Shown: in pieces, positions 6,457-24,711 of the stretch
Numbering within the stretch: the stretch's first letter is position 1
Layout of the letters: each line of letters starts with the position of its first letter
Assembly: GCA_017624085.1 (NCBI GenBank)
Contig: JAGANU010000014.1
Coordinates: 1-37,031, forward strand
Length of the DNA: 37,031 bases
Reading direction: 5' to 3'
DNA from: Coprococcus sp.
GTDB lineage: Bacteria > Bacillota_A > Clostridia > Lachnospirales > Lachnospiraceae
Notes under the pieces: model-generated
Seen by the model: the letters and a program-made list of their open reading frames with translations, nothing else
What the model was told of the DNA's origin: nothing
The model's database searches: none
Position numbers and translations under genes: made by a program

Positions 6457-7518
6457 TTACTTGCTGGCAAGCTCTGCCTTGATAGCCTCTGTAAGTGCAG
6501 GAACAATCTTATTAAGATCTCCAACAACACCGTAATCAGCTACATCAAAGATAGGAGCATCAGCATCTTTATTGATAGCAATGATGATATCTGACTCCTC
6601 CATACCTGCAACGTGCTGGATAGCACCTGAAATACCGATTGCGAAGTAAAGCTGTGGACGAACTGTCTTACCTGTCTGACCAACCTGAAGATCTCTTGGC
6701 ATCCAGCCTGAGTCTACAACAGCACGTGAGCATGATACCTGTCCGCCGAGAACCTCTGCAAGCTCCTCAAGAATCTTGAAGTTCTCTGGTGAACCAACTC
6801 CACGACCACCTGAAACAAGAATCTTAGCGTCCATGATATCCTTGATATCTGAAACTGCCTTAGCGACCTCAAGAATTTCAACATACTTGTTGTTAGGTGT
6901 GAAGCCTGGATTGTAGTTAATAACCTCAGCCTTTGCACCCTCTACCTTGTCAAGCTTCTGCATAACACCCGGACGAACTGTAGCCATCTGTGGACGGTTG
7001 TCAGGACATGCGATTGTAGCGATTGTGTTACCACCAAATGCCGGACGAGTCATAAGAAGCTGATTGTGCTTCTGCTCCTTTCCAGGAATTGGATTAACAG
7101 GGAAATCACCAATCTCAAGTAATGTACAGTCAGCTGTAAGACCGGTTGCTACTCTTGCTGAAACTGTAGGACCAAGATCTCTACCGATAGCAGTTGCACC
7201 AACTAACATAATCTCTGGCTTGTACTCATTGATAACTGAAGCAAGTGCATGTGCATATGGCTCAGTTCTGTAGTTCTTTAATTCAGGATCGTCAACAACG
7301 ATTACCTTATCTGCACCGTAAGCAGCAAGCTCATCAACAAGGCCTGAAACCTCAGAACCAACTAAAACTGCTGTTACCTGTGTATCTAACTGCTGTGCAA
7401 GTCTCTTACCCTCGCCAATAAGCTCGAATGAGATACCGCTTAAAACATTATCTACCTGCTGTGCAAAGACGAATACGCCCTTGTACTTTGCTAATTCTTC
7501 TGCGTTCATTGCGCCCAT
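6457..7518 (-). CDS. etfA: Electron transfer flavoprotein alpha subunit
   Basis: With EtfB it forms the FAD heterodimer that works with butyryl-CoA dehydrogenase. In Clostridia the complex is known to bifurcate NADH electrons to crotonyl-CoA and ferredoxin. The C-terminal FAD domain shows [12 protein letters not shown], the [10 protein letters not shown] block and IGISGAIQH, all classic EtfA motifs; the N-terminal alpha/beta domain resembles EtfB. The start is uncertain. ATG 7518 is used here, but GTG codons at 7530 and 7527, just after AAAGGAAA, and ATG 7509 are alternatives in the same frame. The gene follows etfB after a short gap and ends at the operon terminator. Confidence 0.95.
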
Positions 7519-7539
7519 TTTATTCACCACTTTCCTTTT

Positions 7540-8319
7540 CTAGATTACGTGCTTGTCTTTTAACTTTCCTACAATGTATGCTACCGGATCTGCATCCTCA
7601 GGAGCCATTTCGCCCTGACCCTTCTTAACCTTGTCAGATGCTCTTGCAATCTTTGTAGGTGAACCGTTCAAACCGATGTTAGAATCATCAACATCAACAA
7701 GATCAGCTCTGCCAAGTGTTGTGATCTCTGCATTTACTGCATCAAAGATTCCACCTGGAGTCATGTATCTAGGCTCATTTAACTCTGCAAGTGCAGTGAT
7801 GAGACATGGCATCTGAGCCTTAACCATATGATAACCATCATCGTACATACGCTTAACAATAACGCTGTCACCATCGATCTTAATATCCTGTGCATATGAA
7901 ATAACAGGAAGTCCAAGATGCTCAGCAATCTGCGGTCCAACCTGAGCTGTATCTCCATCGATAGCCTGACGGCCTGTGATAACTAAATCATAATCAAGCT
8001 TTCTAAGAGCACCGGCAATTGTTGTTGATGTAGCCCATGTGTCAGCTCCACCAAGTACACGATCTGTTACAAGAACACCCTTGTCAGCACCCATAGCAAT
8101 AGCTTCCTGAAGAACATCTGCAGCCTTTGGAAGACCCATTGTAAGAACTGTAACCTCTGCGCCATACTCATCCTTCATTCTAAGAGCAGCCTCAAGACCA
8201 GCCTTATCATCAGGGTTCATGATTGTGAGCATTGCTGCTCTGTTTAATGTACCATCCGGGTTGAACTGAACGCCACCCTTAGTATCAGGTACCTGCTTTA
8301 TACAAACTATAACCTTCAC
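7540..8319 (-). CDS. etfB: Electron transfer flavoprotein beta subunit
   Basis: EtfB is the partner of EtfA and holds the second nucleotide or flavin site of the bifurcating EtfAB-Bcd complex. The 259-residue product begins MKVIVCIKQVPDT, typical of EtfB. It carries the binding signature TGRQAIDGDTAQVGPQ near residue 120 and a C-terminal recognition-loop region. It starts with GTG at 8317-8319, chosen because AGGAGG lies 9 bp upstream and no better start exists. It sits between bcd and etfA with short spacers, as expected for translationally balanced subunits of one complex. Confidence 0.96.
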   Translation of the reverse strand: MKVIVCIKQVPDTKGGVQFNPDGTLNRAAMLTIMNPDDKAGLEAALRMKDEYGAEVTVLTMGLPKAADVLQEAIAMGADKGVLVTDRVLGGADTWATSTTIAGALRKLDYDLVITGRQAIDGDTAQVGPQIAEHLGLPVISYAQDIKIDGDSVIVKRMYDDGYHMVKAQMPCLITALAELNEPRYMTPGGIFDAVNAEITTLGRADLVDVDDSNIGLNGSPTKIARASDKVKKGQGEMAPEDADPVAYIVGKLKDKHVI

Positions 8320-8336
8320 GTTAAGTACCTCCTAAT

Positions 8337-9503
8337 TTACTTTAATAAGTTAGCAGAAATAACCATACGCTGAACCTCTGAAGTTCCCTCGTAGATCTCT
8401 GTAATCTTAGCATCACGCATCATACGCTCAACATCGTACTCCTTGATGTAACCGTAACCACCGTGTAACTGTACACACTTTGTAGTAACCTCCATAGCAA
8501 CCTCAGCTGCGTAAAGCTTAGCCATAGCTGCCTCTACTGAGTATGAAACCTTAGCACCGCTCTGGAACTCATCCTTCTTTCTTGCAGCCTTGTATACAAG
8601 AAGCTTAGCTGCCTCTACCTTTGTAGCAAGGTCAGCAAGTACAAACTGAGTATTCTGGAACTGAGCGATTGATCTTCCAAACTGCTTTCTTTCCTTTACA
8701 TAGTTGATTGTTGTCTCAAGAGCGCCCTCTGCAATACCAAGAGCCTGAGCAGCGATACCGATACGTCCACCGTCAAGTGTATGCATAGCGATGTTGAAGC
8801 CCTTGCCCTTCTGTCCAAGAAGTGCATCCTTTGGAATACGGCAATCTGTGAAGATAAGCTCGTATGTAGAAGAACCACAGATACCCATCTTGTTCTCCTT
8901 TGTACCAAATGTAAAGCCAGGAGTATCCTTCTCTACGATAAATGCTGAAATCTCCTTCATCTTTCTGCCACGCTTCTCAACGATACCTGTAACAGCAATA
9001 ACGATATATACATCAGCTTCCTTACCATTTGTAATGAAGCACTTTGAACCATTGAGTACCCACTCGTCACCGTCAAGTACAGCCTTTGTCTGCTGACCCT
9101 GTGCATCTGTACCGGCACCTGGCTCAGTAAGACCAAAAGCACCAAGCTTCTTTCCTGAAGCAAGATCAGGAACATACTTAGCTTTCTGCTCCGGTGTACC
9201 ATATGTTACGATTGGATCAACACAAAGTGATGTATGTGCTGAAACAATAACACCTGTAGTACCACAAACCTTTGAAAGCTCCTCAACGCACATAGCATAG
9301 GTGAGAATATCACAGCCCTGTCCGCCTAACTCCTTAGAAACAGGTATTCCTAAGAAACCATACTTTGCCATCTTATCAACAGTCTCTCTAGGGAATCTGT
9401 GCTCTTCATCAATTTCCTGAGCAAGAGGCTTTACTTCATTCTGCGCGAACTCTCTAAACAGATTCTGCGCCATTTCATACTTCTTGTCTAAAGCGAAATC
9501 CAT
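8337..9503 (-). CDS. bcd: Butyryl-CoA dehydrogenase (short-chain acyl-CoA dehydrogenase)
   Basis: Reduces crotonyl-CoA to butyryl-CoA with FAD and EtfAB, the key energy-conserving step of butyrate formation. The 388-residue sequence has the acyl-CoA dehydrogenase blocks [14 protein letters not shown] (flavin and substrate contacts), [13 protein letters not shown], the [10 protein letters not shown] region and the C-terminal [11 protein letters not shown]. The catalytic base is in IYEGTSEVQ (about Glu372). Length is normal. A GGAGGA ribosome site precedes the ATG. The placement between hbd and etfB is the common order in butyrate-producing Lachnospiraceae. Confidence 0.97.
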
Positions 9504-9533
9504 TCTAATTATTCCTCCATAAATATATTTCTA

Positions 9534-10406
9534 TTACTGAGCATCAACTGGTGTCTTTGTACGATCAGCATTGTAGATATAGAAACCTCTGCCGCTCTTA
9601 ACACCAAGATTGCCGCCACGTACCATCTTACGAAGTAATGGACATGCACGATACTTGCTGTCACCTGTCTCATTGTAAAGAACATCCATAATTGCAAGAC
9701 AGATATCAAGACCTACAAAATCACCAAGCTCAAGTGGTCCCATTGGATGGTTAGCACCAAGCTTCATGGCTGCATCAATACCTGCGATATCTGAAACGCC
9801 CTCCATCTTGATGAATGCAGCTTCGTTAATCATAGGAATAAGAATTCTGTTTACAACAAAGCCGGCAGCCTCATTAACCTGTACAGGTGTCTTGCCAATC
9901 TCCTCTGAAATCTTAACAATCTGATCAACTGTCTCAGCTGGTGTATTAACACCTGCAATAACCTCAATAAGCTTCATTCTGTCAGCCGGATTGAAGAAAT
10001 GCATACCGATCATAGGACGTGTAAGACCATTTCCAATCTCTGTAATAGAAAGTGATGATGTGTTTGAAGCAAAGATACACTCTGGCTTGCAGATCTTATC
10101 AAGCTCAGCAAATGTTGTTTTCTTTACTTCCATATTCTCGAAAGCAGCCTCAACTATAAGGTCACAATCTGCACATAAATCTTCCTTAAGACCCGGAGTA
10201 ATGCTTGCAAGTATAGCATCAACCTTCTCCTGATCCATCTTACCTTTTTCTACAAGTCTTGCATAGCCTTTAGCAATCTTATCCTTTCCGCCTTCAGCCC
10301 ACTCCTGCATGATGTCGCAGAGTGCAACCTCGTATCCGTCAACCTGAGCAAATGCCTTTGCAATGCCCTGACCCATGGTACCTGCACCAATTACGCCAAC
10401 CTTCAT
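9534..10406 (-). CDS. hbd: 3-hydroxybutyryl-CoA dehydrogenase
   Basis: Reduces acetoacetyl-CoA to 3-hydroxybutyryl-CoA with NAD(P)H. The 290-residue product opens with the Rossmann motif GVIGAGTMGQGIA. It carries FASNTSSLSI, the catalytic histidine in IGMHFFNPADRM (His136) with its partner glutamate in the EVIAG region, and the C-terminal helical domain with NHPMGPLELGDFVGLD. It follows crt after a 148-bp spacer that holds a long hairpin, and precedes bcd by 30 bp. The ATG has TTAGGAGG upstream. Confidence 0.97.
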   Translation of the reverse strand: MKVGVIGAGTMGQGIAKAFAQVDGYEVALCDIMQEWAEGGKDKIAKGYARLVEKGKMDQEKVDAILASITPGLKEDLCADCDLIVEAAFENMEVKKTTFAELDKICKPECIFASNTSSLSITEIGNGLTRPMIGMHFFNPADRMKLIEVIAGVNTPAETVDQIVKISEEIGKTPVQVNEAAGFVVNRILIPMINEAAFIKMEGVSDIAGIDAAMKLGANHPMGPLELGDFVGLDICLAIMDVLYNETGDSKYRACPLLRKMVRGGNLGVKSGRGFYIYNADRTKTPVDAQ

Positions 10407-10488
10407 TCTAATTTCCTCCTAAAATCATAATTTGTGGTATACATGAGAAATTCATATACGTTTCGTTTAACATGCTACCATATATCAC

Positions 10489-10533
10489 ACATTTAGGATG
10501 GATTACCTTATTCAGATTCCCCACCCTAAATGT
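10489..10533 (-). other. Intercistronic hairpin between crt and hbd
   Basis: Arms at 10489-10501 (ACATTTAGGATGG) and 10521-10533 (CCACCCTAAATGT) pair over 13 positions, with one mismatch that becomes a G-U pair in the minus-strand transcript. The loop is 19 nt. No T-tract follows, so it is probably an mRNA processing, stability or partial attenuation element rather than a terminator. Confidence 0.7.
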
Positions 10534-10554
10534 TAATACCAAAAATATATAAAA

Positions 10555-11346
10555 CTATTTGTTCTGGAACGGAACAACCTTAAGCTTCTTTTCCTTATCC
10601 TTCTCAAGGAAGTTACCCATTCCTGCCTTCTGGTCTTCAGTCTCGAAGCAGTCACCAAAGAGCTTCTCCTCAATAACGATTGCCTGATCCATATCAACCT
10701 GTAATCCCTCGTTAATTGCCTTCTTACAGTTTCTTACTGCAATAGGTGCATTTGCAGCGATGCCGGCTGCCATCTTCTTTGCTGCCGGAAGGAGCTCTTC
10801 AAGTGGATATACGGCATTTACAAGACCTATTCTGTAAGCCTCATCAGCCTTAATGTTTCTGGCTGTATAGATAAGCTGCTTAGCCATACCGGCACCTACG
10901 AGACGGGCAAGTCTCTGTGTACCGCCAAAACCTGGTGTAATTCCAAGGCCTACCTCAGGCTGACCGAATACTGCATTCTCTGAGCAGATTCTGATATCAC
11001 AGCTCATTGATATCTCACAACCGCCACCAAGTGCAAACCCATTGATAGCAGCAATTACAGGGATTGGGAATATCTCGATTGCTCTGAATACATCGTTCCC
11101 CTTCTTTCCGAAGGCCTCTCCCTCTGCCTTTGTGAGAGTTGACATCTCACCGATATCGGCTCCGGCAACAAATGACTTCTCGCCGGCACCTGTAAGGATA
11201 AGACATCTTGTTGTCTCAAGGTCAACTGCCTTAAATGTAGCATCAAGCTCCTCGAGAACCTGACTGTTAAGAGCATTAAGAGCCTTTGGACGGTTGATAG
11301 TTATAATTCCTACATATCCTTCCTGTTCGTATGTAACAAACTCCAT
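10555..11346 (-). CDS. crt: Crotonase, short-chain enoyl-CoA hydratase
   Basis: Dehydrates 3-hydroxybutyryl-CoA to crotonyl-CoA. The 263-residue product shows the crotonase fold motifs: the oxyanion-hole segment FVAGADIGEM (about residues 59-68), NGFALGGGCE with catalytic Glu111, and GQPEVGLGITPGFGG with catalytic Glu131. The C-terminal helix region ends VPFQNK. Length is normal. It lies 55 bp after thl with its own AAGGAG site. Its position between thl and hbd supports crotonyl-CoA as substrate over longer-chain enoyl-CoA. Confidence 0.96.
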   Translation of the reverse strand: MEFVTYEQEGYVGIITINRPKALNALNSQVLEELDATFKAVDLETTRCLILTGAGEKSFVAGADIGEMSTLTKAEGEAFGKKGNDVFRAIEIFPIPVIAAINGFALGGGCEISMSCDIRICSENAVFGQPEVGLGITPGFGGTQRLARLVGAGMAKQLIYTARNIKADEAYRIGLVNAVYPLEELLPAAKKMAAGIAANAPIAVRNCKKAINEGLQVDMDQAIVIEEKLFGDCFETEDQKAGMGNFLEKDKEKKLKVVPFQNK

Positions 11347-11401
11347 GATAAATCTCCTTTATATTGTAATTAGTCTCGATTTAATACTATACAGATATGT
11401 A

Positions 11402-12586
11402 TTAGTCCTCAATCTTAACAACTGTAGAACATCCCATTCCACCACCGATACAGAGTGTAGCAAGACCTGTCTTAGCTCCCTTAGCCTGCATCTCATGAAG
11501 AAGTGTAACAAGGATACGACAGCCTGAAGCACCAACAGGATGTCCGAGAGCGATTGCTCCACCATTTGGATTGAGCTGCTTTTCTACATCAATTCCAAGG
11601 TCCTTACCTACTGCAACTGACTGTGCAGCAAATGCCTCATTTGCCTCGATGATATCAAAGTCTTCAATCTTAAGACCTGTCTTAGCCATAACCTTCTTTG
11701 TTGAAGCAACAGGTCCGATACCCATGATTGAAGGATCAACTCCACCAAGAGCTCCTGCTACCCAAGTAGCCATAGGCTTTACGCCAAGCTCCTTAGCCTT
11801 CTCCTCGCTCATAACAACGATAGCTGCTGCACCATCGTTGATACCTGAAGCGTTACCAGCTGTAACAAATCCATCAGGGTTTATTGTTCTAAGTCTGGAA
11901 AGTGTCTCAACAGTTGTGCCAGGTCTTGGTCCCTCGTCCTTCTTGAACTCAACCATTTCCTTCTTCTTCTTTACCATAACCGGTACGATCTCTGCGTCAA
12001 ATGCGCCTGCCTCCTGAGCTGCTACTGCCTTCTGCTGGCTGTTTGCTGCAAACTCATCAAGCTCCTCACGTGTAAGACCCCACTGCTCACAGATGTTGTC
12101 AGCTGTCTTAATCATGTGATAGTTGTTGAATGCATCCCAAAGAGCATCATTAACCATTGTATCAACGAGTGTACCATTGTTCATTCTGTAACCAAAACGT
12201 CCCTGCATCATAGCGTATGGTGCCATAGACATATTCTCCATACCACCTGCAACAACAATGTCAGCATCTCCTGCCTCAATCATCTGTGCAGCCATATTTA
12301 CACAGTTAAGACCTGAACCACAGACAACGTTAACTGTAACAGCAGTTGTCTCGATTGGAAGTCCTGCCTTAATTGAAGCCTGACGTGCTACATTCTGTCC
12401 AAGACCAGCCTGGATAACACATCCCATATATACGTGGTCTACCTGATCTGCAGGAACTCCTGCTCTCTTGATAGCCTCCTTGATAACGATTGCGCCAAGC
12501 TCTGGTGCTGGTGTTGTGCTGAGTGAACCACCCATTGTTCCGATAGCTGTACGACATGCGCCTGCTAAAACAATCTTCTTTGCCAT
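11402..12586 (-). CDS. thl: Acetyl-CoA acetyltransferase (thiolase)
   Basis: Condenses two acetyl-CoA to acetoacetyl-CoA, the entry step of butyrate synthesis. The 394-residue product has the acyl-accepting cysteine in NVVCGSGL (Cys89), NEAFAAQ near residue 317, the catalytic histidine in ALGHPVGASG (His349) and the second cysteine in LCIGGGMG (Cys379). It is the first cistron of the operon, with GGAGG upstream of the ATG and a sigma-A promoter about 65 bp upstream. Confidence 0.97.
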   Translation of the reverse strand: MAKKIVLAGACRTAIGTMGGSLSTTPAPELGAIVIKEAIKRAGVPADQVDHVYMGCVIQAGLGQNVARQASIKAGLPIETTAVTVNVVCGSGLNCVNMAAQMIEAGDADIVVAGGMENMSMAPYAMMQGRFGYRMNNGTLVDTMVNDALWDAFNNYHMIKTADNICEQWGLTREELDEFAANSQQKAVAAQEAGAFDAEIVPVMVKKKKEMVEFKKDEGPRPGTTVETLSRLRTINPDGFVTAGNASGINDGAAAIVVMSEEKAKELGVKPMATWVAGALGGVDPSIMGIGPVASTKKVMAKTGLKIEDFDIIEANEAFAAQSVAVGKDLGIDVEKQLNPNGGAIALGHPVGASGCRILVTLLHEMQAKGAKTGLATLCIGGGMGCSTVVKIED

Positions 12587-14725: not shown

Positions 14726-15718
14726 CTATTCTTCTTTTTTGTCAGCCAGATTAACTGACATTCCTGCGCCAAGAGCAACAGCCTCAAGCGCCTTTTCAGA
14801 TACATAGGCCTCTATTCCTGTTTTCTCTTTTATTAGGGCGTCCATACCATATATTAAGCTTCCCCCACCTGTAAGCACAATACCGGATACAGCAATATCT
14901 GACACAAGCTCAGGTGGTGCTATCTCAAGTACATTATGAATAGCAGCCAAAATATGATTTGTTGTCTCTTCAAATGCAACAACAGTCTCATTTGCTGTTA
15001 TTGTCACAGCTTTAGGCAGCCCTTTAATCAGATCTCTTCCTTTTATTACATACTCAATATCATCTTTTCTTGGCATAACAGAGCCAATTTCAATCTTTGC
15101 AGTTTCTGCAGTCTGCTCGCCAATCAACAGATTATATTTTCTTCTAACATATTTAATCAGTGAACTGTTGAAATCATCCCCGGCATATTTAATTGAGCTG
15201 CTTTCTACCGCACCTCCAAGTGAAATCACGGCGATATCTGTCGTACCACCGCCTATGTCAACTACCATATTTCCTTTTGCTTCAGATATATCAACATTTG
15301 CACCTACAGCAGCAGCAAGAGGCTCCTCCATAACATACACAGTCTTTGCACCTGTTTTATACACAGCCTCTTCCACAGCACGCCTTTGAACCTCAGTTAC
15401 ACCGCTAGGTACACATACACATATTCTTGGTCTTCCTACACCGGATCTTTTTTCCATAGCGCTTCTAATATAAGCCTTTAACATAATTTCTGTTATGGTG
15501 TAATCCGAAATAACGCCCTTATTTAAAGGACGTACTACCTCGATATTTTCCGGGGTTTTACCGAGCATCTTTTTTGCCTTAGTGCCAACTGCAATTATTC
15601 TTTTTGATGGCAACTCATAGGCAACAACCGATGGTTGGTTTACAACAACTCCTTTTCCTTTTACACTAATAAGCACATTTGATGTACCCAAATCTACTCC
15701 AATATCAGTTGAAAGCAT
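14726..15718 (-). CDS. mreB: MreB/Mbl-type bacterial actin
   Basis: An actin-like ATPase that guides cell-wall synthesis in rod-shaped cells. The 330-residue product has the phosphate-1 loop GVDLGTSN (residues 7-14) and the phosphate-2 loop VDIGGGTTDIAV (about 153-164). It also has the MEEPLAAAVGA segment and the adenosine motif VLTGGGSLIYGMD. Length matches MreB. No mreC or mreD follows, so it may be Mbl or another paralogue rather than the main MreB. The ATG has TTAGGAG upstream. It begins 52 bp after a strong hairpin that ends the coiled-coil operon, and I see no clear promoter in between. Confidence 0.92.
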   Translation of the reverse strand: MLSTDIGVDLGTSNVLISVKGKGVVVNQPSVVAYELPSKRIIAVGTKAKKMLGKTPENIEVVRPLNKGVISDYTITEIMLKAYIRSAMEKRSGVGRPRICVCVPSGVTEVQRRAVEEAVYKTGAKTVYVMEEPLAAAVGANVDISEAKGNMVVDIGGGTTDIAVISLGGAVESSSIKYAGDDFNSSLIKYVRRKYNLLIGEQTAETAKIEIGSVMPRKDDIEYVIKGRDLIKGLPKAVTITANETVVAFEETTNHILAAIHNVLEIAPPELVSDIAVSGIVLTGGGSLIYGMDALIKEKTGIEAYVSEKALEAVALGAGMSVNLADKKEE

Positions 15719-15764
15719 ACAAATCTCCTAAAGTATGGCTCATCGCCGTTTTTTTAAATTGCAG

Positions 15765-15820
15765 GCATAAAAATACCAGTGCTATAACAAAATCATTATA
15801 AGCACTGGTATTTTATTTTT
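15765..15820 (-). terminator. Terminator after the coiled-coil/AAA-like operon
   Basis: AAAATACCAGTGCT (15770-15783) and AGCACTGGTATTTT (15801-15814) form a perfect 14-pair stem with a 17-nt AT-rich loop. The minus strand continues with TTTTTATG. The symmetric A and T tracts could allow it to work in both directions. Confidence 0.85.
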
Positions 15821-15855
15821 CAACATAATTCTAAGTCCATAAAATCATGTAAGGA

Positions 15856-18800
15856 TTATTTAATTTCTTTCTTGAGAACCTTTTTATCGATAGGGTCTCT
15901 TGTCTCAGCAAGCTTCATAGCCTCATCCATTGCTGTGAGAAGTCTGTCTATATTACCTGACTCAATAGTCATAAGAACATTCTTTATAGCAGCATCTGTA
16001 CCGCTTTCAAGCTTAAAGCCCTTTTCTTCAAAGTAATGCTCAGCAATATCAACCATGCCTGCCTCTGTAATCTGGTCAAAGTATACTCTGTTGTTAAAGG
16101 TCTTTGCCTGCGCCATATTCTGTGCAAGCATATTGCTAAGTGCAACCTTCTCTCCTGTAAGAATAATCTTAATGTCATTCTTCTCAGGCGAGCACATATC
16201 AACCATCTCTTTAAAACGCTCCGGAGTAATAAGTCCTGCGCTCTCAATAATAAGGCATCCGCCCTTAAGCTTTGCTACAGCACCTGCCAGCTTACCGCTA
16301 TTTATTACCTTCGCTTTAACCTTTGCCTTGGCCTGTGACTTTACAATACCCATATCATAGTAGAATTTAGCAAAATCCTCACCAACAGTTGTAAGTCCAA
16401 ATCCATGTAAACCAAGGATAACTATGTTCTTTGATCTCTTAGGATCAACCTTGAGAGTCTGAAGTACATTTACTATCTGTGCACCTGCAGGCTCAATACT
16501 GAGGTACTTAAACAGATACTTTGCCTTATCAGGAAGCGACTTACGTCTTGCAGCTACAGCTTCACTAACTGATGCTGCCATAGTAGCTTCTTCATCCTGG
16601 GAAATAACCTTTGAAGCCTCTTCAATCTTTCCGGCCTTGAGGAGTTCTTCCTGCTTCTTGTATTCTTCTTCTCTCTTTATAGCTTTTTCAAGAACCTTAG
16701 TCGCAGCAGTTGCCTTGCTTCTAATATCATCAAGTTGCTTCTTTAAATCAGCCTCGGTCTTCTCGATGGACGCCAGATCGCTCTTCTTCTTTGCTTCAGC
16801 CTCAGCCTTTGCCTGCTTGGCTGCTTCTTTTCTAGCAACAACACGTTCAGCCTGCTCTGTCTTAAGTTCAGATATCTTAGATAATAAATCATTTTCCTTC
16901 TTCTTGGCATCATCAAGAAGCTTCTTGGCATCAGACTTAGCCTTCGCCTTCATATCAGCTGCATCCTTTTCTGCCTTCATTGCAGCTGTCTTAACCTTAT
17001 CAAGCTCTGTAGATTCAGCCTCTGCGTACCTTTCATCCTCAGATGCAAGATATGCCTCATGATTCTCCTGTCTTGCCTTGCTAGCTGCATTTACCTTATC
17101 AGTTTCTTCCTTGGCATGGGATTCAGCATTCTTGATTTCAACATCCTCAGCTATCTTCGCTTCTTCTACAATCTGTTCAGCTTCCTCTGCAGCAGCTTCA
17201 GCCTTTGAAAGGAGATCCTCAGCTTCAACTCTTGACTTCTTAGCCAGGTTAAGTGCTTCAAGAGCTTCCGCCTTTGCTGACTTAAATGAGTTGTTCTCTT
17301 TTTCAGCTGCAGTTACTTCGCCTGCAACATTCCTGTTTTCTTCCTCTGCAGTCTTTATGTCAGAATCCAGCTTTGCAATATTTGATTCACTATCAGAAAT
17401 CTTCTTTAGTACATCTTCCTTTGCCTTCTTGGCAGCTTCAAGAACCTTTAATGCCTCTGCCTCTGCATTCTCAGCTTTCTTAAGCTCTTCCTTCTGAATT
17501 GCAAGCTTTGTATTTGCATCATTTCTGCTGTTCTTTGTATCCTTGACCTTTTTATCTGATTCAGAAAGCTTTTTCTTGAGCTCATCAAGATTCTTCTGTG
17601 ACTGTTGCTCAAGCTCTGTTGTGTTTTTCAGATTTGCATCTGCCTCAGACTCAGCCTTCTTTGAATCACTGAAGATTGTTCCTGCCTTTGCTTTATCAGC
17701 CTCTGCATCCTTAGAAAGCTTAGTAGCCTTTGCTTCCTCGTCGGAACGTTTTTTCTTTGCTGCATCTATGGCCTTATTCTTAGCATTCTCAATTTCGGCA
17801 AGCTTCTTCTTGTCCTCATCACACGCCTTATTGTACTCGGCAATGCTCTTTTCTACGTTTGCCTTCTTTGTTTCAGAAAGAGCCTTTATTGCCTTATCAG
17901 CAGCAACCTGTGCATCAGAAATCACCTTATCCTTGTATGCTTCAGGATTGCTCTCCTTAAGAATCTTGTCTGACTCAGCTTTTGCCTTATCGTTTGATTC
18001 AGCTATCTCCTTCTTTATTTTAGAAACTGCAGCCTCCAGCTCCTTTTCTTCGCGCTCAAGCAGCTCGGAGTCACTCTTCTTTTTAGCCTCTGCCTCCTGA
18101 GCAAGCTTAGCATCATAGCTATCCTTCTTTGCCTTGAGCTCTTCAAGCTGTTTTGTAAGCTCCTTCTCAGTAGCTTCACACTCTTCAATTGTTTTCTTTG
18201 ATGTTTCAGCATGCTTTCTGGCTTCACTTGCATTCTTCGCTGCTTCATCTATTGAACGCTGCTTCCTAGCCTCAGCCTCAGCCTTTGCCTTTTCTTCAGC
18301 AGCCTTCTTTCTGGCCTCCTCGGCTTCCTTACGCTTCTTTTCTTCCTCTGCCTTTCTCTTAGCTTCTTCCTCAGCCTTCTTCTTGGCCTCTTCCTCAGCC
18401 TTCTTCTTAGCTTCCTCTTCAGCTTTCTTTTTAGCTTCCTCTTCAGCCTTCTTCTTGGCAATTTCCTCCGGGCTTTCCTCATCAATATTTGAAAGGTTCT
18501 TTATACCTGCGCCGAGGAAATCATCATCTTCTTCATCATCAAAGTCGTATAATGAATCTTTGTTGTTTCCTTTATTATCTCTATCCGGTAATATGCTAAA
18601 CAAATCTCCGTTGGCATCGCTACCCTTTTTTGGTGACTCAACCTTCTTAACCTTAGCATCCTTATCGGTTACCCACAAAAGTGACTCATCCTCTGTTGCT
18701 TCTGCTTCATCATCTGTCAGGATAATATTACTTCCTCCCTTAGACTTAACAGAACCGAACATATCCTCTTGCTTACTAAAGTCAGGCTTCGGCTCGCTCT

Positions 18801-19449
18801 TTTTAACAGACTCAGCTTTTGCGCTGTCAGCTTTCTTAGCTCCAAGGCCTCTGCCGAGACCACCCTCAGGCTTTGCTCCAAGACCACCGCCGAGGCCACC
18901 CTCAGGCTTTGCTCCAAGACCGCCGCCAAGACCGCCCTCAGGCTTTGCTCCAAGACCACCACCGAGGCCGCCCTCAGGCTTTGCTCCAAGACCACCGCCA
19001 AGACCACCCTCAGGCTTTGCTCCAAGACCACCGCCCTTCTTAGCTCCAAGACCGCCGTCACTTACATTGTCGGCAATACCGCCAAGATTAAGACTAAGCT
19101 TTGGTGCCTGTGTCTTTTCTTCTTTATTCTCTTTCTTTTCAGCAGTATCTTTGACCTCCTGCTGCGCATCATCCTTATTGTCCTCTTCGGCTTTTTCCGG
19201 CTTATCTTCATGAATTATGCCAAGAGCTTCTTCCCTTTTACGACGCTTTTTGGCCTCTATTCGTTCAAGCTCCTCCTTGGACAAAATCTTATGCTGGCTT
19301 TTGTTCCCTTCAGATTCCTTTTTCTTGCCGCCACTCTTTAAGAGTTCTTCCTCAGCCTGTCTTTTCTTTTTGGCAGCTTCGGCAGCTCTTTCTTTTTCAA
19401 GCTGAGCTTTAATCGCAGCAATCATAGCTTCTGTCTGATCTACAGCCAA
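15856..19449 (-). CDS. Giant Lys/Glu-rich coiled-coil protein with a C-terminal degenerate AAA+ (CbbX/SpoVK-like) domain
   Basis: The 1197-residue protein is not recognised as a whole. Residues 1-140 are charged and low in complexity. Residues about 143-203 are five near-identical 12-residue Gly-rich repeats (GLGAKPEGGLGG type). Residues about 325-960 are Lys/Glu/Ala coiled coil, opening with 8-residue KKKAEEEA repeats. From about 970 to the end is a folded domain: VILGLHGFGLTTVG at the Walker A position (1011-1024), GGCLIIESAGLI at Walker B (1063-1074), then DIKIILTGEK at the sensor position, in the order seen in CbbX/SpoVK ATPases. The Walker A lysine is Leu1019 and the DE pair is Glu-Ser, so ATP hydrolysis is unlikely. 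The TTG start at 19449 is supported by AAAGGAGG 8 bp upstream. No signal peptide is seen. Last cistron of its operon. Confidence 0.85.
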   Translation of the reverse strand: MAVDQTEAMIAAIKAQLEKERAAEAAKKKRQAEEELLKSGGKKKESEGNKSQHKILSKEELERIEAKKRRKREEALGIIHEDKPEKAEEDNKDDAQQEVKDTAEKKENKEEKTQAPKLSLNLGGIADNVSDGGLGAKKGGGLGAKPEGGLGGGLGAKPEGGLGGGLGAKPEGGLGGGLGAKPEGGLGGGLGAKPEGGLGRGLGAKKADSAKAESVKKSEPKPDFSKQEDMFGSVKSKGGSNIILTDDEAEATEDESLLWVTDKDAKVKKVESPKKGSDANGDLFSILPDRDNKGNNKDSLYDFDDEEDDDFLGAGIKNLSNIDEESPEEIAKKKAEEEAKKKAEEEAKKKAEEEAKKKAEEEAKRKAEEEKKRKEAEEARKKAAEEKAKAEAEARKQRSIDEAAKNASEARKHAETSKKTIEECEATEKELTKQLEELKAKKDSYDAKLAQEAEAKKKSDSELLEREEKELEAAVSKIKKEIAESNDKAKAESDKILKESNPEAYKDKVISDAQVAADKAIKALSETKKANVEKSIAEYNKACDEDKKKLAEIENAKNKAIDAAKKKRSDEEAKATKLSKDAEADKAKAGTIFSDSKKAESEADANLKNTTELEQQSQKNLDELKKKLSESDKKVKDTKNSRNDANTKLAIQKEELKKAENAEAEALKVLEAAKKAKEDVLKKISDSESNIAKLDSDIKTAEEENRNVAGEVTAAEKENNSFKSAKAEALEALNLAKKSRVEAEDLLSKAEAAAEEAEQIVEEAKIAEDVEIKNAESHAKEETDKVNAASKARQENHEAYLASEDERYAEAESTELDKVKTAAMKAEKDAADMKAKAKSDAKKLLDDAKKKENDLLSKISELKTEQAERVVARKEAAKQAKAEAEAKKKSDLASIEKTEADLKKQLDDIRSKATAATKVLEKAIKREEEYKKQEELLKAGKIEEASKVISQDEEATMAASVSEAVAARRKSLPDKAKYLFKYLSIEPAGAQIVNVLQTLKVDPKRSKNIVILGLHGFGLTTVGEDFAKFYYDMGIVKSQAKAKVKAKVINSGKLAGAVAKLKGGCLIIESAGLITPERFKEMVDMCSPEKNDIKIILTGEKVALSNMLAQNMAQAKTFNNRVYFDQITEAGMVDIAEHYFEEKGFKLESGTDAAIKNVLMTIESGNIDRLLTAMDEAMKLAETRDPIDKKVLKKEIK
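18340..18470 (-). repeat. Tandem 24-bp coding repeats (KKKAEEEA helix)
   Basis: About five 24-bp units encode successive KKKAEEEA octads within the coiled-coil gene. Alternating blocks of positive and negative charge favour a single charged alpha-helix like that of TolA. Unit boundaries are approximate because the array decays at both ends. Confidence 0.8.
18842..19021 (-). repeat. Five tandem 36-bp coding repeats (Gly-rich, GLGAKPEG units)
   Basis: Five contiguous 36-bp units, beginning at 18842, 18878, 18914, 18950 and 18986 on the plus strand, encode 12-residue GLGAKPEGGLGG-type repeats. Differences are mostly synonymous third-position changes. A partial sixth unit follows from 19022. The array is prone to copy-number change by slippage or recombination. 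Confidence 0.9.
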
Positions 19450-19514
19450 TACCCTCGCCTCCTTTACGTATGATCAAATAAAAAGCAATACCATATATAT
19501 TATGCTAATTTATT

Positions 19515-21863
19515 TCATTTTGAATGGCCTTTCAATGTAAAAGACCTTTTTTTCTTATGACCTTCAAGTCCATCTGACTCATCATCTGTTTTTTGTTCGT
19601 CATAAGCTTTTTCATTCTCCTTGGAGTTATCTGCTACAGAAGCAGCTCCAACAGAGGTTGTAGCTTCTTCCGCATTCGCATTATCTTCTTCATTAAAATC
19701 GAATATGGAATTAAATTCTGTATTGAGCTTTATGCCAAGTCTGGCCAGCAGCTTATCTGTTTCACTAAGAAGGTCTTCCTCCTTCTTAAGATTCTCATTT
19801 ATCTCTGCTTCCTTTTCATCAATAAGTGAACTGCCACTATCCCTCTTTATATCATAAAGCTGAGCATTATCCGTATTGTAATCAGGGAAAAGGCTTGACT
19901 TAAATACAGGAAATTCTTTATCCTTTTTAGGCTCTTTATGAGTATCAATAGCTTCTTCCTTACAAATACCCTCATCTTCATGATTGGCTTCTTGTACTGA
20001 GTGCATCAAAACATCGCTATCAGACTCATCTATTGATGCATCAGAAATCTCACTATCATTATCAGAATCATTCTGCGTCTGTGATGCATCATCACTCTTC
20101 AAGCTTTCATCAACTTCAAACTCTGCCAATGCCTCATATGCTTTTTCAAAATCAAAACCCTTTTTCATATCATCACCAGACTCTTCTTCATTAACTTGCT
20201 TCTCGTCAACAGAATCTTCATCTAAATTATCATCGATTGTTTCTGCGCTATCCTCTGATTTCTCAATAGTTGCCTCATCTATTTCATACAAAATATCTGT
20301 TTTTGCATCTGTTTCAAACGCATCTTCCGGTATTTCTGTGTCAAAGGCTGCATCAAAATCCTCATCAAAGCTCTCCGTCTGTTCATCAACACCAAGGGCT
20401 TCTTCCTGAAACTCTTCATCAAACTCCCCGTCGAAGTCCTCTGTTTGAGCCTCCTCGACAAATTCCTCAACCGGAGCCAGCTCAACAGATTCTTCAACCT
20501 GAACCTCTTCGTCATAGTCCTCAGCCTGAATATCTTCGTCAAAGGAATTTTCGAAATCCGCCGGTTGTTCATCCTGGGAAAAGACCTCATCGAATTCTTC
20601 TTCTAAAGGTTCTCCGGCTTGAGCAGAAACATTCGGCTCATTAAAATCTTCATCAAATGCTTCATCAAAATTTACCATGACAAGCTCTTCAGGTTCTTCC
20701 TCAAGCACATATGTATCTTCCTCAGGCATTTCCTTTAGCTCATATTCAGTATTCATAATATTGGGAATATCTGATGCCTGGCCCACTGACTTACTGTAAT
20801 CGGTCTGATCAGGTACACTGTCGGTATGGTCAAACGCTTTATTAGCATCACCCGAATCAGCTTCGCCCGGTGAATGATCGTCGTTACCGGTGATAACCTC
20901 CTCAAGTAGCTTTTCTCTATCTATATTCTCACCAGATAATTCCTCAAACTCCTGCTTAATAAGAGCATCTTCCTTTTTTGATAATCTTCCAAATAACTTC
21001 TTTTGCTTTTTCGTATCATCTGAGATAGAATCATCTTCAAGCTTCTGCTCTTTTTTTTGCTCTTTTTTTAGTTCTTTTTTATCCTTGGATCTTATAAACA
21101 TCTGTTTTATCTTCATGGAGCTTGATACCGGAGCATCATCTTCTACCATGATCATAATCTTTGCATCCTTTGGATGTAATCTAAGGTCATCCTCTTCAAG
21201 AACCTTTGCCTCTGTAAGTCTGATGCTCTCCTGGGAGGGATCTTCATCAGCAATTTCCTCTTCAGGGTAACAGTATATCATAGATTCCAAGTCGGTATCA
21301 CCACTCATTAGATTATCCAACATATAAAGTCTGGAGGAGTTTTTATGATTTGCTTTGAATTCTATACATGCGCTCTGAAACTTTTCTTTATTTCGTATAT
21401 ATGCATGCAGTAGCAGCATCTCAAAATCCCACTGTTCATCTGACTCTATATCATTTGCTGATAAAAGAATGCTATAAAGCTCATTAACAGGCTTTCTATA
21501 TGACTTTGCAATCATATACTCAACTCTTAGGGTAAATACATCCTTGCTATCCTGATTAAATTTAAAAATCTCATAATACTTTTCTGCAAGAGTTCTGTAT
21601 CCCATTGTAAGGTATAGGTTAATGAGTGAATAAACAATCTTATTACCAACAGGAGCCATAGCGTGAGCTCTGACTAAAGCCTCTCTTGCTTTAGCATATT
21701 TTTTATTTTCAAAATATACCTCACCGCATATTCTAATAAACTGTGGACTAAGTGACTTTGACAGGTCCTGATGTTCCAGAATATCAAGAGCAAGGCTGTA
21801 ATCACCGTTTTCTGCAAGCTCTTTTATTTTGTTGACACTTGACATACTGATTCCTGTACCCAT
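19515..21863 (-). CDS. TPR-like protein with long acidic, FDE-repeat disordered region
   Basis: The function is not recognised. Residues about 9-185 of 782 form helical pairs that look like tetratricopeptide repeats (GDYSLALDILEHQ, KKYAKAREALVRAHAMAP, GYRTLAEKYYEIFKFNQ), a protein-binding scaffold. Residues 250-300 are a basic patch. Residues about 320-700 are highly acidic and probably disordered, with a run of FDE-type motifs (FDEAFDEDF, FDEVF, FDEDI, FDGEFDEEF, FDEDFDAAFD) at 399-510. A helical segment near 700-740 (LLSETDKLLARLGIKL) follows, then a basic C-terminus. The ATG at 21863 has GGGAGG upstream. It lies between the rhomboid and coiled-coil genes, 65 bp before the latter, so a shared complex is plausible. 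Confidence 0.82.
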   Translation of the reverse strand: MGTGISMSSVNKIKELAENGDYSLALDILEHQDLSKSLSPQFIRICGEVYFENKKYAKAREALVRAHAMAPVGNKIVYSLINLYLTMGYRTLAEKYYEIFKFNQDSKDVFTLRVEYMIAKSYRKPVNELYSILLSANDIESDEQWDFEMLLLHAYIRNKEKFQSACIEFKANHKNSSRLYMLDNLMSGDTDLESMIYCYPEEEIADEDPSQESIRLTEAKVLEEDDLRLHPKDAKIMIMVEDDAPVSSSMKIKQMFIRSKDKKELKKEQKKEQKLEDDSISDDTKKQKKLFGRLSKKEDALIKQEFEELSGENIDREKLLEEVITGNDDHSPGEADSGDANKAFDHTDSVPDQTDYSKSVGQASDIPNIMNTEYELKEMPEEDTYVLEEEPEELVMVNFDEAFDEDFNEPNVSAQAGEPLEEEFDEVFSQDEQPADFENSFDEDIQAEDYDEEVQVEESVELAPVEEFVEEAQTEDFDGEFDEEFQEEALGVDEQTESFDEDFDAAFDTEIPEDAFETDAKTDILYEIDEATIEKSEDSAETIDDNLDEDSVDEKQVNEEESGDDMKKGFDFEKAYEALAEFEVDESLKSDDASQTQNDSDNDSEISDASIDESDSDVLMHSVQEANHEDEGICKEEAIDTHKEPKKDKEFPVFKSSLFPDYNTDNAQLYDIKRDSGSSLIDEKEAEINENLKKEEDLLSETDKLLARLGIKLNTEFNSIFDFNEEDNANAEEATTSVGAASVADNSKENEKAYDEQKTDDESDGLEGHKKKRSFTLKGHSK

Positions 21864-21900
21864 AATCAGCCTCCCACATATTAATCGTCGTATTATTTTA

Positions 21901-22923
21901 TCATATTGAACTATTCTTTACAACCTTTTGATTTGTCACGATTAGCAATATTCCCACAATTAATCCACATATAAAGCCGGTTAAATGTGCAATATTATCT
22001 ATCCCCTCAGACAGGTATCCGTTAATCATTGTAAAAACAAATAATATAACCATATTGATTAACGATAGATCCTTGACAACGCCTTTATTCTTTACTGCAA
22101 TTGCAACCAAAACTCCAAGAAGTCCGAATATTGCTCCGGATGCACCGGCGGAAAATTCATAGCTTCCGTTGAAATAACAATCAACATACGACGCAAATGC
22201 GGAAGCAAGTCCGCATATGAGATAGATAATAATAAAATTTATCTTTCCTACGATATTCTCCACTCTTGCGCCAAGGGCAATCAATACAACCATATTACCA
22301 AATAAATGGGCAAAGCCAAAATGTGTAAAAAATGAGGATATAAAACGATAATACTCTCCTTTTTCAACAATCCCATATACATTTATAGCTAAAATCCGTG
22401 ATATATCTAATCCATTATAAATTTCAGAGATAAAAATTCCAGATACATATACAAGAATATTGAGAACAACTAGAATAGGCGTAACAACCCCAAACATTCT
22501 CCTTAGCTGATTGTGAGTTTTTTCATTTTCATAATTTGACTGCTTATCGAGAATGTAAAACAGTCCATCAAAATCTGCAGGCTGATTCTCATATATATAC
22601 AGCTTTCCATAATCTTCAGTAAAAAGCCATACGTTATTCATATTCTCAACAATTTCCTTTGTATTATCGTCAAACATGCCGTTTTGTGCCAGCAAAATGT
22701 TGAGTATACAAATCTTTTTTTGAGAATCTGTTAACAAATCGTGTCGGATTTTATCATTAAAATCAATAAGTGCCTGTGCACTAAGATTATAATTGCTACC
22801 TATAACAACAACGTACACGGCATCATCATCCGTTCTGCCGTATACGTTGTTGCTTTCAGGATTAAGTCTCCTGTATCCTTTTTTTTCTAAAATGTTAATA
22901 ATATGTACAATATTATGTTGCAT
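21901..22923 (-). CDS. Rhomboid-family intramembrane serine protease
   Basis: Predicted to cleave transmembrane substrates inside the cytoplasmic membrane. The 340-residue product has a soluble N-terminal domain (1-145) like the YqgP branch, then about seven helices. Hallmarks are HFGFAHLFGNM (His201, His206, Asn210), the catalytic serine in SAGASGAIFG (Ser262) and the catalytic histidine in HLTGFICG (His313). The ATG at 22923 is chosen because AAGG lies 5 bp upstream. An upstream in-frame start at 23004 would overlap the previous gene and adds residues lacking domain similarity. It is the second cistron of the four-gene operon. Its catalytic residues are intact, so it should be active. Confidence 0.93.
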   Translation of the reverse strand: MQHNIVHIINILEKKGYRRLNPESNNVYGRTDDDAVYVVVIGSNYNLSAQALIDFNDKIRHDLLTDSQKKICILNILLAQNGMFDDNTKEIVENMNNVWLFTEDYGKLYIYENQPADFDGLFYILDKQSNYENEKTHNQLRRMFGVVTPILVVLNILVYVSGIFISEIYNGLDISRILAINVYGIVEKGEYYRFISSFFTHFGFAHLFGNMVVLIALGARVENIVGKINFIIIYLICGLASAFASYVDCYFNGSYEFSAGASGAIFGLLGVLVAIAVKNKGVVKDLSLINMVILFVFTMINGYLSEGIDNIAHLTGFICGLIVGILLIVTNQKVVKNSSI

Positions 22924-22978
22924 ATTTACCTTCCGCTCGTTAGAAATAATTAGCCTTCCTGCAACCTTTGTATATACA

Positions 22979-24088
22979 TTATAATCCAAGGAACAGGTTC
23001 TCAACCTTCTCTATAACTGAGTCCTTCATAGAACCTCTTGTCTTTTCGTAATGAAGACCTGACTCCATAATTTCAAGAAGCTGCATTCTAAGTCCTGCAT
23101 CAATCTCTGAGATATACTTCATCAGAACATCCTTAATCTCTACTACATATTCCTTTGTCTTCATCTCATCAAGCATCGGCTCGTAGTTAAAGCTTATGGA
23201 ATTCTTCATCTCATCCTGTTTTCTTCCGCATATTACGCACTCTTCTGCGCCGCCTTCGTTGACATGACCACAGTTACATGTCCAAACAAGACCATCTGAC
23301 TTATAATTTGAAACAGCATCTATACCCTTCTTTGCCTTGAGCGCCTTAAACTTAATCTCTGACATCTCAACGCCAACAGGATCAGCATCGATCTCGTATA
23401 CACCGCTGGACTTAACATACTTCTTGATATATACCTTTGCAGATGTAATCATCTTTATATACTTTTCAGGAAGCTTACATTCAACGTAATCTGATTTAAG
23501 AAGATTTACACTTGATTTATCAAATGTGAAATCAATATCAGGTAATGTGATGTTATCTCCGTATATATTTGTAAACTGAATGTCTGTCTTGATAGCGCGA
23601 ATATCGTCATTATTATAATTGTTGAACCAAAGGCTTACCTTTGTACCCTTGCCCTCAGATGCAATAATTACCTTTGAGGCCCTTGGAACAAGAAGGTCAT
23701 AATAGTTTCTTACATACACTTCGTTCTTCACATAACTGCTGGTATCAAGCTCAGACTTCGGATGCTTTTTAACAGTCACAAGTGTACCGCTTGCAACAAC
23801 AGCAGTTACATTGTTAGTATATACCTCAACTCCTGTTCTGAAGCCAACTACAGCATTGTAATTCGATTCACTTACAATGTGCTGAAAATTCTTGATTGTC
23901 TCATTGAGAATCTCGTCAATCTTCTCCTGGTAAACTCCTCTTCTGTCTGTAGCAATATCAGCCAGTGATGTTCCCAAATCCTTTAAAAAGTTTGAATTGA
24001 TAATCGTCTGAGTAAACTTATATTTACCATACTCCACGATATCATAGCCCTCAAAGCTGTTTCCTGATGTAATTAAAATGTTGCTCAT
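22979..24088 (-). CDS. YbjQ-like N-terminal domain fused to a zinc ribbon, hypothetical
   Basis: Residues 1-110 of 369 resemble the YbjQ/UPF0145 fold: a 'GYDIVEYGKY' opening, a central helix with RRGVYQEKIDEI, then NAVVGFRTGVEVYTN and a VVASGTLV end strand. Residues about 110-260 are a beta-rich region without a name. A four-cysteine zinc ribbon (WTCNCGH...ECVICG; Cys271, 273, 284 and 287, with CxC spacing) follows, then a helical C-terminus. The ATG at 24088 has GGGAGGT 7 bp upstream; the GTG at 24097 lies against the ribosome site. It heads the operon that includes the rhomboid, TPR and coiled-coil genes and has its own promoter. UPF0145 function is unsettled, so none is assigned. Confidence 0.75.
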   Translation of the reverse strand: MSNILITSGNSFEGYDIVEYGKYKFTQTIINSNFLKDLGTSLADIATDRRGVYQEKIDEILNETIKNFQHIVSESNYNAVVGFRTGVEVYTNNVTAVVASGTLVTVKKHPKSELDTSSYVKNEVYVRNYYDLLVPRASKVIIASEGKGTKVSLWFNNYNNDDIRAIKTDIQFTNIYGDNITLPDIDFTFDKSSVNLLKSDYVECKLPEKYIKMITSAKVYIKKYVKSSGVYEIDADPVGVEMSEIKFKALKAKKGIDAVSNYKSDGLVWTCNCGHVNEGGAEECVICGRKQDEMKNSISFNYEPMLDEMKTKEYVVEIKDVLMKYISEIDAGLRMQLLEIMESGLHYEKTRGSMKDSVIEKVENLFLGL

Positions 24089-24115
24089 GTTGTGCACCTC
24101 CCAAATAATACTAAA

Positions 24116-24144
24116 ATTGTATCACATCAAAATCCAATAAACAA
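24116..24144 (-). promoter_or_regulatory. Promoter of the YbjQ-like/rhomboid/TPR/coiled-coil operon
   Basis: On the minus strand, TTGTTT (24139-24144) and TACAAT (24116-24121) are spaced by 17 bp, with TGA before the -10 (extended). The predicted start is about 20 bp before the ATG. Confidence 0.65.
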
Positions 24145-24219
24145 TATTTTTTGTGTATTTTATATTAATTCAACCAAACTTTTTGTGAATTTTATCGATG
24201 CACATAACATTTTTAACGT

Positions 24220-24711
24220 TTACAACCTCTTTTTATATGTAACAAATGTATAGTTGACGTCGCATTGCTCTGTTTTTTCTTTCTCATTTGCCACATACCA
24301 TGATTCATCCTTGTCAAGATTTGCAATATATGCATCAGCATCATACGCCTTGTCTATCTTAGTTATTATACCCTCATTGCAATATGGAATAAGAGCTTCA
24401 TATACACTCTGACCGCCTATAATATATATATCGTCCTCCTGATAACTGTTCAGAACCTCCATCAGCTCGTCAATCGAATGAACAACAAGAGCGCCCTCAA
24501 CCTCAAAACCAGTATTTCTGCTAAGGATGATATTCGTTCTTCCCTTTAATGGCTTTCCTCCCGGGAACTCCTCAAGAGTTTTTCTACCAAGTACAACCAC
24601 GTGTCCCATGGTTGTTTCCTTAAAGAACCTCTGATCCTCTTTTATTCTTACAAGAAGCTTTCCTTTGTTTCCTATAGCCCAGTTCTTGTCTACTGCAGCA
24701 ATAAATTTCAT
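24220..24711 (-). CDS. folA: Dihydrofolate reductase
   Basis: Reduces dihydrofolate to tetrahydrofolate with NADPH, recycling the product of thymidylate synthase. The 163-residue sequence shows AAVDKNWAIGNKG, the substrate-binding helix with the acidic residue in KEDQRFFKETTMG, VVVLGRKTLEEF, TNIILSR, and IYIIGGQSVYEALIPYC before the C-terminal sheet. Length is normal. The usual LPWHLP stretch is replaced by LLVRIK, a substitution next to the active site. It starts 38 bp after thyA with GGAGG upstream, a common folate operon. Confidence 0.95.
   Translation of the reverse strand: MKFIAAVDKNWAIGNKGKLLVRIKEDQRFFKETTMGHVVVLGRKTLEEFPGGKPLKGRTNIILSRNTGFEVEGALVVHSIDELMEVLNSYQEDDIYIIGGQSVYEALIPYCNEGIITKIDKAYDADAYIANLDKDESWYVANEKEKTEQCDVNYTFVTYKKRL

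What the first reader, a model, noticed from the sequence alone, without database searches (positions are those of the whole stretch)
15856..19449. Giant coiled-coil protein capped by an apparently dead AAA+ domain
The C-terminal ~230 residues keep the block order of CbbX/SpoVK AAA+ ATPases, with degenerate catalytic motifs. The Walker A region is GLHGFGLTT (Leu at the lysine position). The Walker B region is GGCLIIES (Glu-Ser instead of Asp-Glu). The sensor-like DIKIILTGEK and an arginine at FNNRVYF remain. Losing both nucleotide motifs while keeping the fold suggests a pseudo-ATPase used as a binding or assembly module, tethered to about 630 residues of charged coiled coil. I know of no described protein of this architecture.
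Basis: partly seen in the sequence, partly recalled or inferred. Interest (0 to 1): 0.78.

Follow-up and report, generated by a model that had tools for sequence, protein, structure and literature searches.

The report
Dead AAA+ half of split TPR protein
This gut-bacterium gene makes a long helical protein ending in an ATPase-like domain whose ATP-using residues have been lost across its whole lineage, and relatives show that it is one half of a bigger protein whose other half is encoded by the neighbouring gene.

Summary

New here: the domain belongs to a family in 285 of 397 sampled genomes of one family (Lachnospiraceae) and 14 of 391 of its class. Relatives carry it at the C-terminus of one long protein that begins with a TPR domain, the domain encoded by the window's upstream gene (19515-21863). 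In 19 of 19 carrier genomes tested the TPR profile hits that gene alone. So the window pair is a split form of one protein. Many relatives keep the lysine, few (5 of 109) the catalytic glutamate; the tree needs three lysine losses.

A dedicated MreB paralogue lies downstream in 43 of 45 loci, but a terminator-like hairpin intervenes in 28 of 43.

Most likely: a nucleotide-independent docking/assembly module working with the TPR protein. A cytoskeletal role is plausible but unproven.

The parts
15856..19449 (-). Long helical protein with C-terminal pseudo-AAA+ domain (pAAA), 1197 aa, TTG start
15856..16554 (-). Pseudo-AAA+ domain (residues 966-1197, with stop codon)
16387..16413 (-). Degenerate Walker A GLHGFGLTT (residues 1013-1021), Leu at the Lys position
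16240..16263 (-). Degenerate Walker B GGCLIIES (residues 1063-1070), Glu-Ser in place of Asp-Glu
16150..16167 (-). Sensor-1-like strand IILTGE (residues 1095-1100); the Gly-Tyr signature of the SpoVK/CbbX/EccA clade is Gly-Glu here
   Evidence: signature from PMC10659427 (passages)
16570..18237 (-). Charged helical/coiled-coil region (residues about 405-960)
18250..18459 (-). E-A-K octad repeats resembling a single alpha helix (residues about 331-400)
18835..19035 (-). Gly/Leu-rich 36-bp tandem repeats (5.6 copies) in the low-complexity N-terminal part
19345..19446 (-). Conserved N-terminal stretch AVDQTEAMIAAIKAQLEKERAAEAAKKKRQAEEE, found in the split-type proteins
19515..21863 (-). Upstream partner: N-terminal TPR domain plus strongly acidic tail (782 aa), 65 bp upstream of the pAAA gene
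21234..21863 (-). TPR domain of the partner (residues 1-210)
14726..15718 (-). MreB paralogue (MreB2), downstream neighbour
15773..15811 (-). Terminator-like hairpin between the pAAA and MreB2 genes
   Evidence: not listed by the scan, which limits the loop to 8

Best explanation
The C-terminal domain is a former SpoVK/CbbX/EccA-type AAA+ domain that has become a nucleotide-independent docking or assembly module. It is one half of a two-part machine: the other half is the TPR/acidic-tail protein of the next gene upstream, and in other Lachnospiraceae both halves are one polypeptide. Shown by computation: the predicted fold, the lineage-wide motif loss, purifying selection, the TPR-AAA fusion, tight same-strand linkage. 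Inferred: the two proteins bind each other; the pAAA domain packs AAA-style without ATP cycling; the long charged helix acts as a spacer; the TPR recruits a client. Weakest step: that the client or anchor is the neighbouring MreB2 filament, i.e. a cell-shape or envelope scaffold.
For: Fold and ancestry. Motif loss fixed in the lineage: Lys in 0 of 137 proteins, Walker B EN 123, ES 16, DN 1 of 140 (window included; from the 19 proteins and the 120 listed of 183). Purifying selection: dN/dS 0.03-0.11 in 6 of 9 domain pairs (dS is 1.4 and 2.2 in two of them, so those ratios are rough). Fusion: 19 of 19 carrier genomes have exactly one hit of the TPR profile at E <= 1e-4, in the AAA-carrying open frame. 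One of them (G142/L120) is a TPR fusion to the Lys-less window-type domain itself (TPR E 6.6e-54). Linkage: TPR partner recognised upstream in 34 of 40 loci with an upstream ORF, the other 6 being the first ORF of the held DNA; no terminator-like hairpin in 33 of 33 TPR-pAAA gaps scanned. MreB2 directly downstream in 43 of 45 loci, its own clade, bootstrap/SH-aLRT 100/99. In 11 of 12 genomes a separate SpoVK/CbbX-type match is found, and the 13 such proteins read have intact motifs, so the loss is specific to this family.
Against: No interaction or activity was measured. 85 of the 137 proteins have a lysine two positions further on (GRNGFGTVK type); I judge it not equivalent, and the window has none there. 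MreB2 adjacency is weak evidence: the whole region from thymidylate synthase to the butyrate-pathway genes is syntenic in these loci, and a terminator-like hairpin lies between pAAA and MreB2 in 28 of 43. Of 8 further window-type loci, 6 have MreB next to the domain and 2 (L081, L082) do not. In G014 the split pair has no MreB beside it and the one MreB found is on another contig; in G142, with the fused window-type protein, only one MreB was found. A mirror-tree test did not single out MreB2: DHFR correlated better. PcdA shows that degraded motifs need not mean zero activity.
Confidence: 0.55

Rival explanations
1. Degenerate but still nucleotide-responsive: the domain binds ATP or another ligand weakly through the kept GxxGFG loop and the acid at Walker B, and ligand binding controls assembly, as in PcdA.
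For: P-loop glycines are invariant in the 11 aligned members and an acid at Walker B is present in 140 of 140; PcdA with similar losses keeps weak, needed NTPase activity (PMC10602043 passages).
Against: Lysine not in place in any of 137 proteins and lost three times on the tree; hydrolytic Glu present in only 5 of 109 family domains; arginine fingers and sensor-2 Arg lost.
Confidence: 0.25
2. Dedicated chaperone/regulator of the neighbouring MreB2: the TPR and pAAA proteins recruit or position an MreB2 filament at a special envelope site. (Not exclusive of the best explanation; it names the client.)
For: MreB2 next door in 43 of 45 loci; MreB2 is its own clade with, by eye, longer branches than the MreB kept elsewhere in the 12 genomes compared; precedents: SpoVK acts on MurG (PMC10659427, abstract), PcdA on FtsZ (PMC10602043, passages).
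Against: Terminator-like hairpin between the genes in 28 of 43; general synteny of the region; no MreB recognised in the 1.5-10 kb read on either side of the TPR-AAA fusions; G142 and G014 as told above; unspecific co-variation.
Confidence: 0.25
3. Decaying relic: the domain is on its way to loss and has no function.
For: The catalytic motifs are gone.
Against: dN/dS 0.03-0.11; 51 invariant columns among 11 members, ten of them at 40-72% identity to the window; 44 loci in a one-genome-per-species collection.
Confidence: 0.03

Closest known systems
CbbX (red-type Rubisco activase)
   Different: No Walker A Lys, no Walker B Asp-Glu, no arginine fingers, no sensor-2 Arg; long helical N-terminal part; no Rubisco domain among the 20 window ORFs scanned with Pfam.
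SpoVK (sporulation AAA+ chaperone of MurG)
   Same: Best NCBIfam match for the window domain (1.5e-7); also a Bacillota protein.
   Different: Far below the equivalog cut-off (30.8 vs 422.95 bits); catalytic motifs lost; SpoVK has a short N-terminal domain and measured ATPase activity (PMC10659427, passages and section list).
EccA (type VII secretion TPR-AAA+ chaperone)
   Same: EccA has N-terminal TPRs and an AAA+ domain of this clade (PMC10659427, passages), the same order as the Lachnospiraceae TPR-AAA relatives.
   Different: Long acidic linker here; split into two genes in the window; motifs lost; no other type VII secretion component among the 20 window ORFs scanned with Pfam.
PcdA (McrB-family AAA+ of Staphylococcus aureus division)
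   Same: Works-like precedent: AAA+ with degraded Walker A and lost catalytic Glu that binds a cytoskeletal filament protein (FtsZ) and a coiled-coil protein (DivIVA) (PMC10602043, passages).
   Different: Different AAA+ branch (McrB, with EVE domains) and architecture; still hydrolyses NTP weakly.

Membership tests
AAA+ superfamily (fold) | Alpha/beta core with C-terminal helical lid | tested here: met
AAA+ ATPase (function) | Walker A GxxxxGK[ST] | tested here: not met
   GLHGFGLT; Lys in place in 0 of 137 proteins
AAA+ ATPase (function) | Walker B hhhhDE | tested here: not met
   LIIES; EN 123, ES 16, DN 1 of 140
AAA+ ATPase (function) | Arginine finger | tested here: not met
   CbbX R-S-R aligns with profile a-e-k, A-K-T in the window
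AAA+ ATPase (function) | ATP binding and hydrolysis | not testable with these tools
   needs purified protein
SpoVK/CbbX/EccA clade (features as given in PMC10659427, passages) | Bihelical hairpin just upstream of Walker A | tested here: met
   Two helices (8-16, 22-35) before the first strand in the model; adenine contact not tested
SpoVK/CbbX/EccA clade | Gly-Tyr signature at sensor 1 | tested here: not met
   Gly-Glu in the window
SpoVK/CbbX/EccA clade | Asn four residues before the first arginine finger | tested here: inconclusive
   An Asn is at about that place in the window (QNMAQAKTF) but not across the family, and the alignment is loose there
SpoVK/CbbX/EccA clade | Second arginine finger (sensor 2) present | tested here: not met
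   GNAR of an active relative aligns with GNID (only one active row reaches this far)
SpoVK/CbbX/EccA clade | Sequence relationship | tested here: met
   Wider-family profile hits CbbX 2.2e-20 and EccA1 2.9e-14. Verdict: derived from or sister to this clade, not a standard member
SpoVK equivalog (TIGR02881) | Score above curated cut-off 422.95 bits | tested here: not met
   30.8 bits
Coiled-coil protein | Heptad-type hydrophobic periodicity | tested here: inconclusive
   Peaks at 3.5-3.67 residues in the segments of 405-965; 331-400 is E-A-K single-helix type
MreB (neighbour) | MreB profile and actin phosphate motifs | tested here: met
   PF06723 1.5e-123; DLGTSN, DIGGGTTD

The most novel reading that the evidence does not exclude
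Lachnospiraceae use a lineage-specific TPR-acidic linker-AAA scaffold in which ATP hydrolysis was given up early and ATP binding was then lost repeatedly. In the window's lineage it split into two proteins and became the dedicated organiser of a second MreB filament: a pseudo-ATPase-based cytoskeletal scaffold of common gut bacteria.
Probability: 0.25. Interest if true: 0.8.

Novelty: new variant of a known kind. Interest (0 to 1): 0.62.

Why it matters
One bacterial family gives a series on a single tree: domains with the Walker A lysine and a Glu after the Walker B acid (3 of 109), domains with the lysine only (38), and domains without it (68), the lysine being lost three times on the tree, under a shared TPR-AAA architecture. 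That makes the order and cause of catalytic loss in AAA+ proteins testable. The family is in 285 of 397 sampled genomes of its bacterial family, gut bacteria among them, yet no Pfam model matched the window protein at E 0.1 or its domain at E 10, and the library searches named in the report found no paper on it.

Tried and rejected
Sequence error or local pseudogene: rejected, 0 of 137 proteins have the lysine in place, and open frames without stops are seen in many genomes.

Mirror-tree coupling of pAAA with MreB2: partial r 0.66, but DHFR gave 0.88, YbjQ 0.92 and TPR 0.78, so the test mostly reflects fast-evolving genes (23 loci with all genes present). Not used as support.

Charge pairing of coil and acidic partner tail: the tail is strongly acidic in all 34 pairs computed (-82 to -225), but the coil part is itself near neutral or acidic (-1 to -86). 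Rejected.

Phage or plasmid origin: one weak hit in each collection, no support. Rfam: two tRNAs in the window, nothing in 15650-24300 at E 0.1. Pfam: no family on the window protein at E 0.1 or on the domain at E 10.

Limits of counts: and 61/106 scored at most 6 candidates per genome, so presence counts are lower bounds. The 109 distinct domains (111 before removing repeats) are not a random sample: best hits and window-type loci are over-represented. One search thinned 110 rows to 69. Of 34 weaker-scoring genomes, 20 loci were read; a TPR was recognised in 18, the other two (L091, L105) beginning at or near a contig end. The 19 genomes were picked because they carry a TPR-AAA protein; the test is that no other gene matches. 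The root of the tree beside the window clade rests on a branch of 91/60 support.

Library searches for prior description; no listed title or abstract start described this family. Only two papers were opened (passages). Most subscription papers are not held, so 'undescribed' is limited to that.

The promoter/terminator scan found about as many terminator-like sites as shuffles (6 against a mean of 6.7) and does not list the pAAA-MreB2 hairpin, as its loop limit is 8. The hairpin count is from my own looser script without shuffles; some of the 28 are weak, such as L004 and L027. The TPR-pAAA gaps (0 of 33 scanned, but shorter) are a rough control.

Full report
WHAT IS THERE. The minus-strand ORF 15856-19449 encodes 1197 residues from a TTG start. 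Most homologues whose N-terminus is held start at the same residue, so the start is probably right. Residues 1-330 are low-complexity with a conserved first stretch and a Gly/Leu tandem repeat. Residues about 331-400 are E-A-K octads typical of single alpha helices. Residues 405-965 are charged helix with coiled-coil-like periodicity. Residues 966-1197 are a folded domain.

THE LOSS IS FIXED AND SELECTED. Among the proteins (120 of 183 listed there) and the window's own, the lysine position is T 81, L 38, S 16, M 2 of 137 proteins, and Walker B is EN 123, ES 16, DN 1 of 140. In 85 of the 137 a lysine sits two positions further on; the window has none there. Domain dN/dS is 0.061 (window vs L001), 0.045, 0.039, 0.030, 0.106 and 0.110 in the pairs that gave a value; three other domain pairs failed, two by saturation and one by an ambiguous base.

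THE FAMILY IS A TPR-AAA FAMILY. A scan of one genome per species gave 44 loci with the window-type domain, mostly titled Lachnospiraceae, Eubacterium or Coprococcus. In 250 genomes of the family of G005 (L018, titled Eubacterium sp. MSJ-21), 44 match at 1e-20; 10 of these score at 4e-57 or better and are window-type. Of the other 34, 20 were read: 18 are single proteins of about 650-1400 residues with a TPR domain at the N-terminus, an acidic or charged linker in those printed, and this AAA domain at the C-terminus; two begin at or near a contig end. With a wider profile, 285 of 397 genomes of the family of G017 match at 1e-35 (357 at 1e-15). G017 carries a protein listed as Suipraeoptans intestinalis on a contig of the same length, a Lachnospiraceae species. 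In the class sample 14 of 391 match at 1e-35, ten of them also in the family sample; 73 match at 1e-15, most of the weak ones unread and probably active paralogues.

HOW THE LOSS WENT. Of 109 distinct family domains, 41 keep the Walker A lysine, 5 have Glu after the Walker B acid, and 3 have both. On a tree of 69 thinned family domains plus 5 active SpoVK-like ones, the lysine label needs three changes: the window clade (100/99), a clade of eight TPR-type rows (99/96), and one K-to-R row. Loss of the catalytic Glu looks earlier than loss of the Lys; deep branches are long and the three K+E rows could be retention or regain, so this is an inference. In 11 of the 12 genomes a separate SpoVK/CbbX-type match is found; the 13 such proteins read have intact motifs.

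THE MreB NEIGHBOUR. A second MreB lies 3-359 bp downstream on the same strand in 43 of 45 loci; the exceptions are L029 (none recognised) and L008 (pAAA frame not called). Of eight further window-type loci, six have MreB adjacent and two do not. All 12 genomes tested have two MreBs. The adjacent ones form a clade of their own (100/99, 17 rows) with, by eye, longer branches. Against a tight link: the whole neighbourhood is syntenic, a terminator-like hairpin separates the genes in 28 of 43, only one MreB was found in G142 and in G014, in G014 none lies beside the split pair, and co-variation was unspecific.

MECHANISM. I read the pair as a two-part scaffold: TPR for client recruitment, acidic tail and charged helix as spacers, pAAA as an assembly or docking surface that no longer cycles ATP. 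Relatives in the same AAA+ branch are described as dedicated chaperones of narrow targets (CbbX, EccA, SpoVK on MurG; PMC10659427, abstract and passages). PcdA shows a degraded AAA+ recruiting FtsZ, and warns that weak activity can persist (PMC10602043, passages). Which client is bound is not known.

NOVELTY. The fold is known; the TPR-linker-pseudo-AAA family, its split form and its repeated loss of the lysine were not found in the listings. I file it as a new variant of a known kind.

Noticed in passing
L189-L192: 18 of 19 TPR-AAA genomes tested carry, besides a normal MreB, a very divergent MreB (30-37% identity to the window's). In the four read, none matches my pattern for the DIGGGTTD phosphate motif and two do not match DLGTxN, so they may be pseudo-actins; the pattern also missed the first motif in two normal MreBs (L178, L179).
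   Followed up: partly
L085-L088, L123; P0122, P0138: Some genomes (Eubacterium ruminantium, AC2031, NE2001 and G171) hold a second, shorter Lys-less paralogue of about 370-434 aa, with no MreB recognised in the stretch read around it. Two of the proteins read (P0122, P0138) start with a basic, amphipathic-looking stretch.
   Followed up: partly
window 22979-24097: Protein with an N-terminal YbjQ domain and a C-terminal CxCGHVNxxxxxxCxxCG zinc-ribbon-like motif; its family is in 35 of 45 loci, upstream of the TPR gene.
   Followed up: no
window 21901-23004: Rhomboid-family protein between the YbjQ gene and the TPR gene in the window and L001-L003, also in L119 and L121; in other loci that show both genes no gene lies between them.
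   Followed up: no
L142: TPR-AAA-family relative with Lys-to-Arg in Walker A (GMQGSGRT) and a Glu after the Walker B acid, an intermediate state worth testing.
   Followed up: no
window 6457-12586: Thiolase, enoyl-CoA hydratase, hydroxyacyl-CoA dehydrogenase, acyl-CoA dehydrogenase and ETF genes in a row, a butyrate-type pathway, syntenic beside the finding in most loci.
   Followed up: partly
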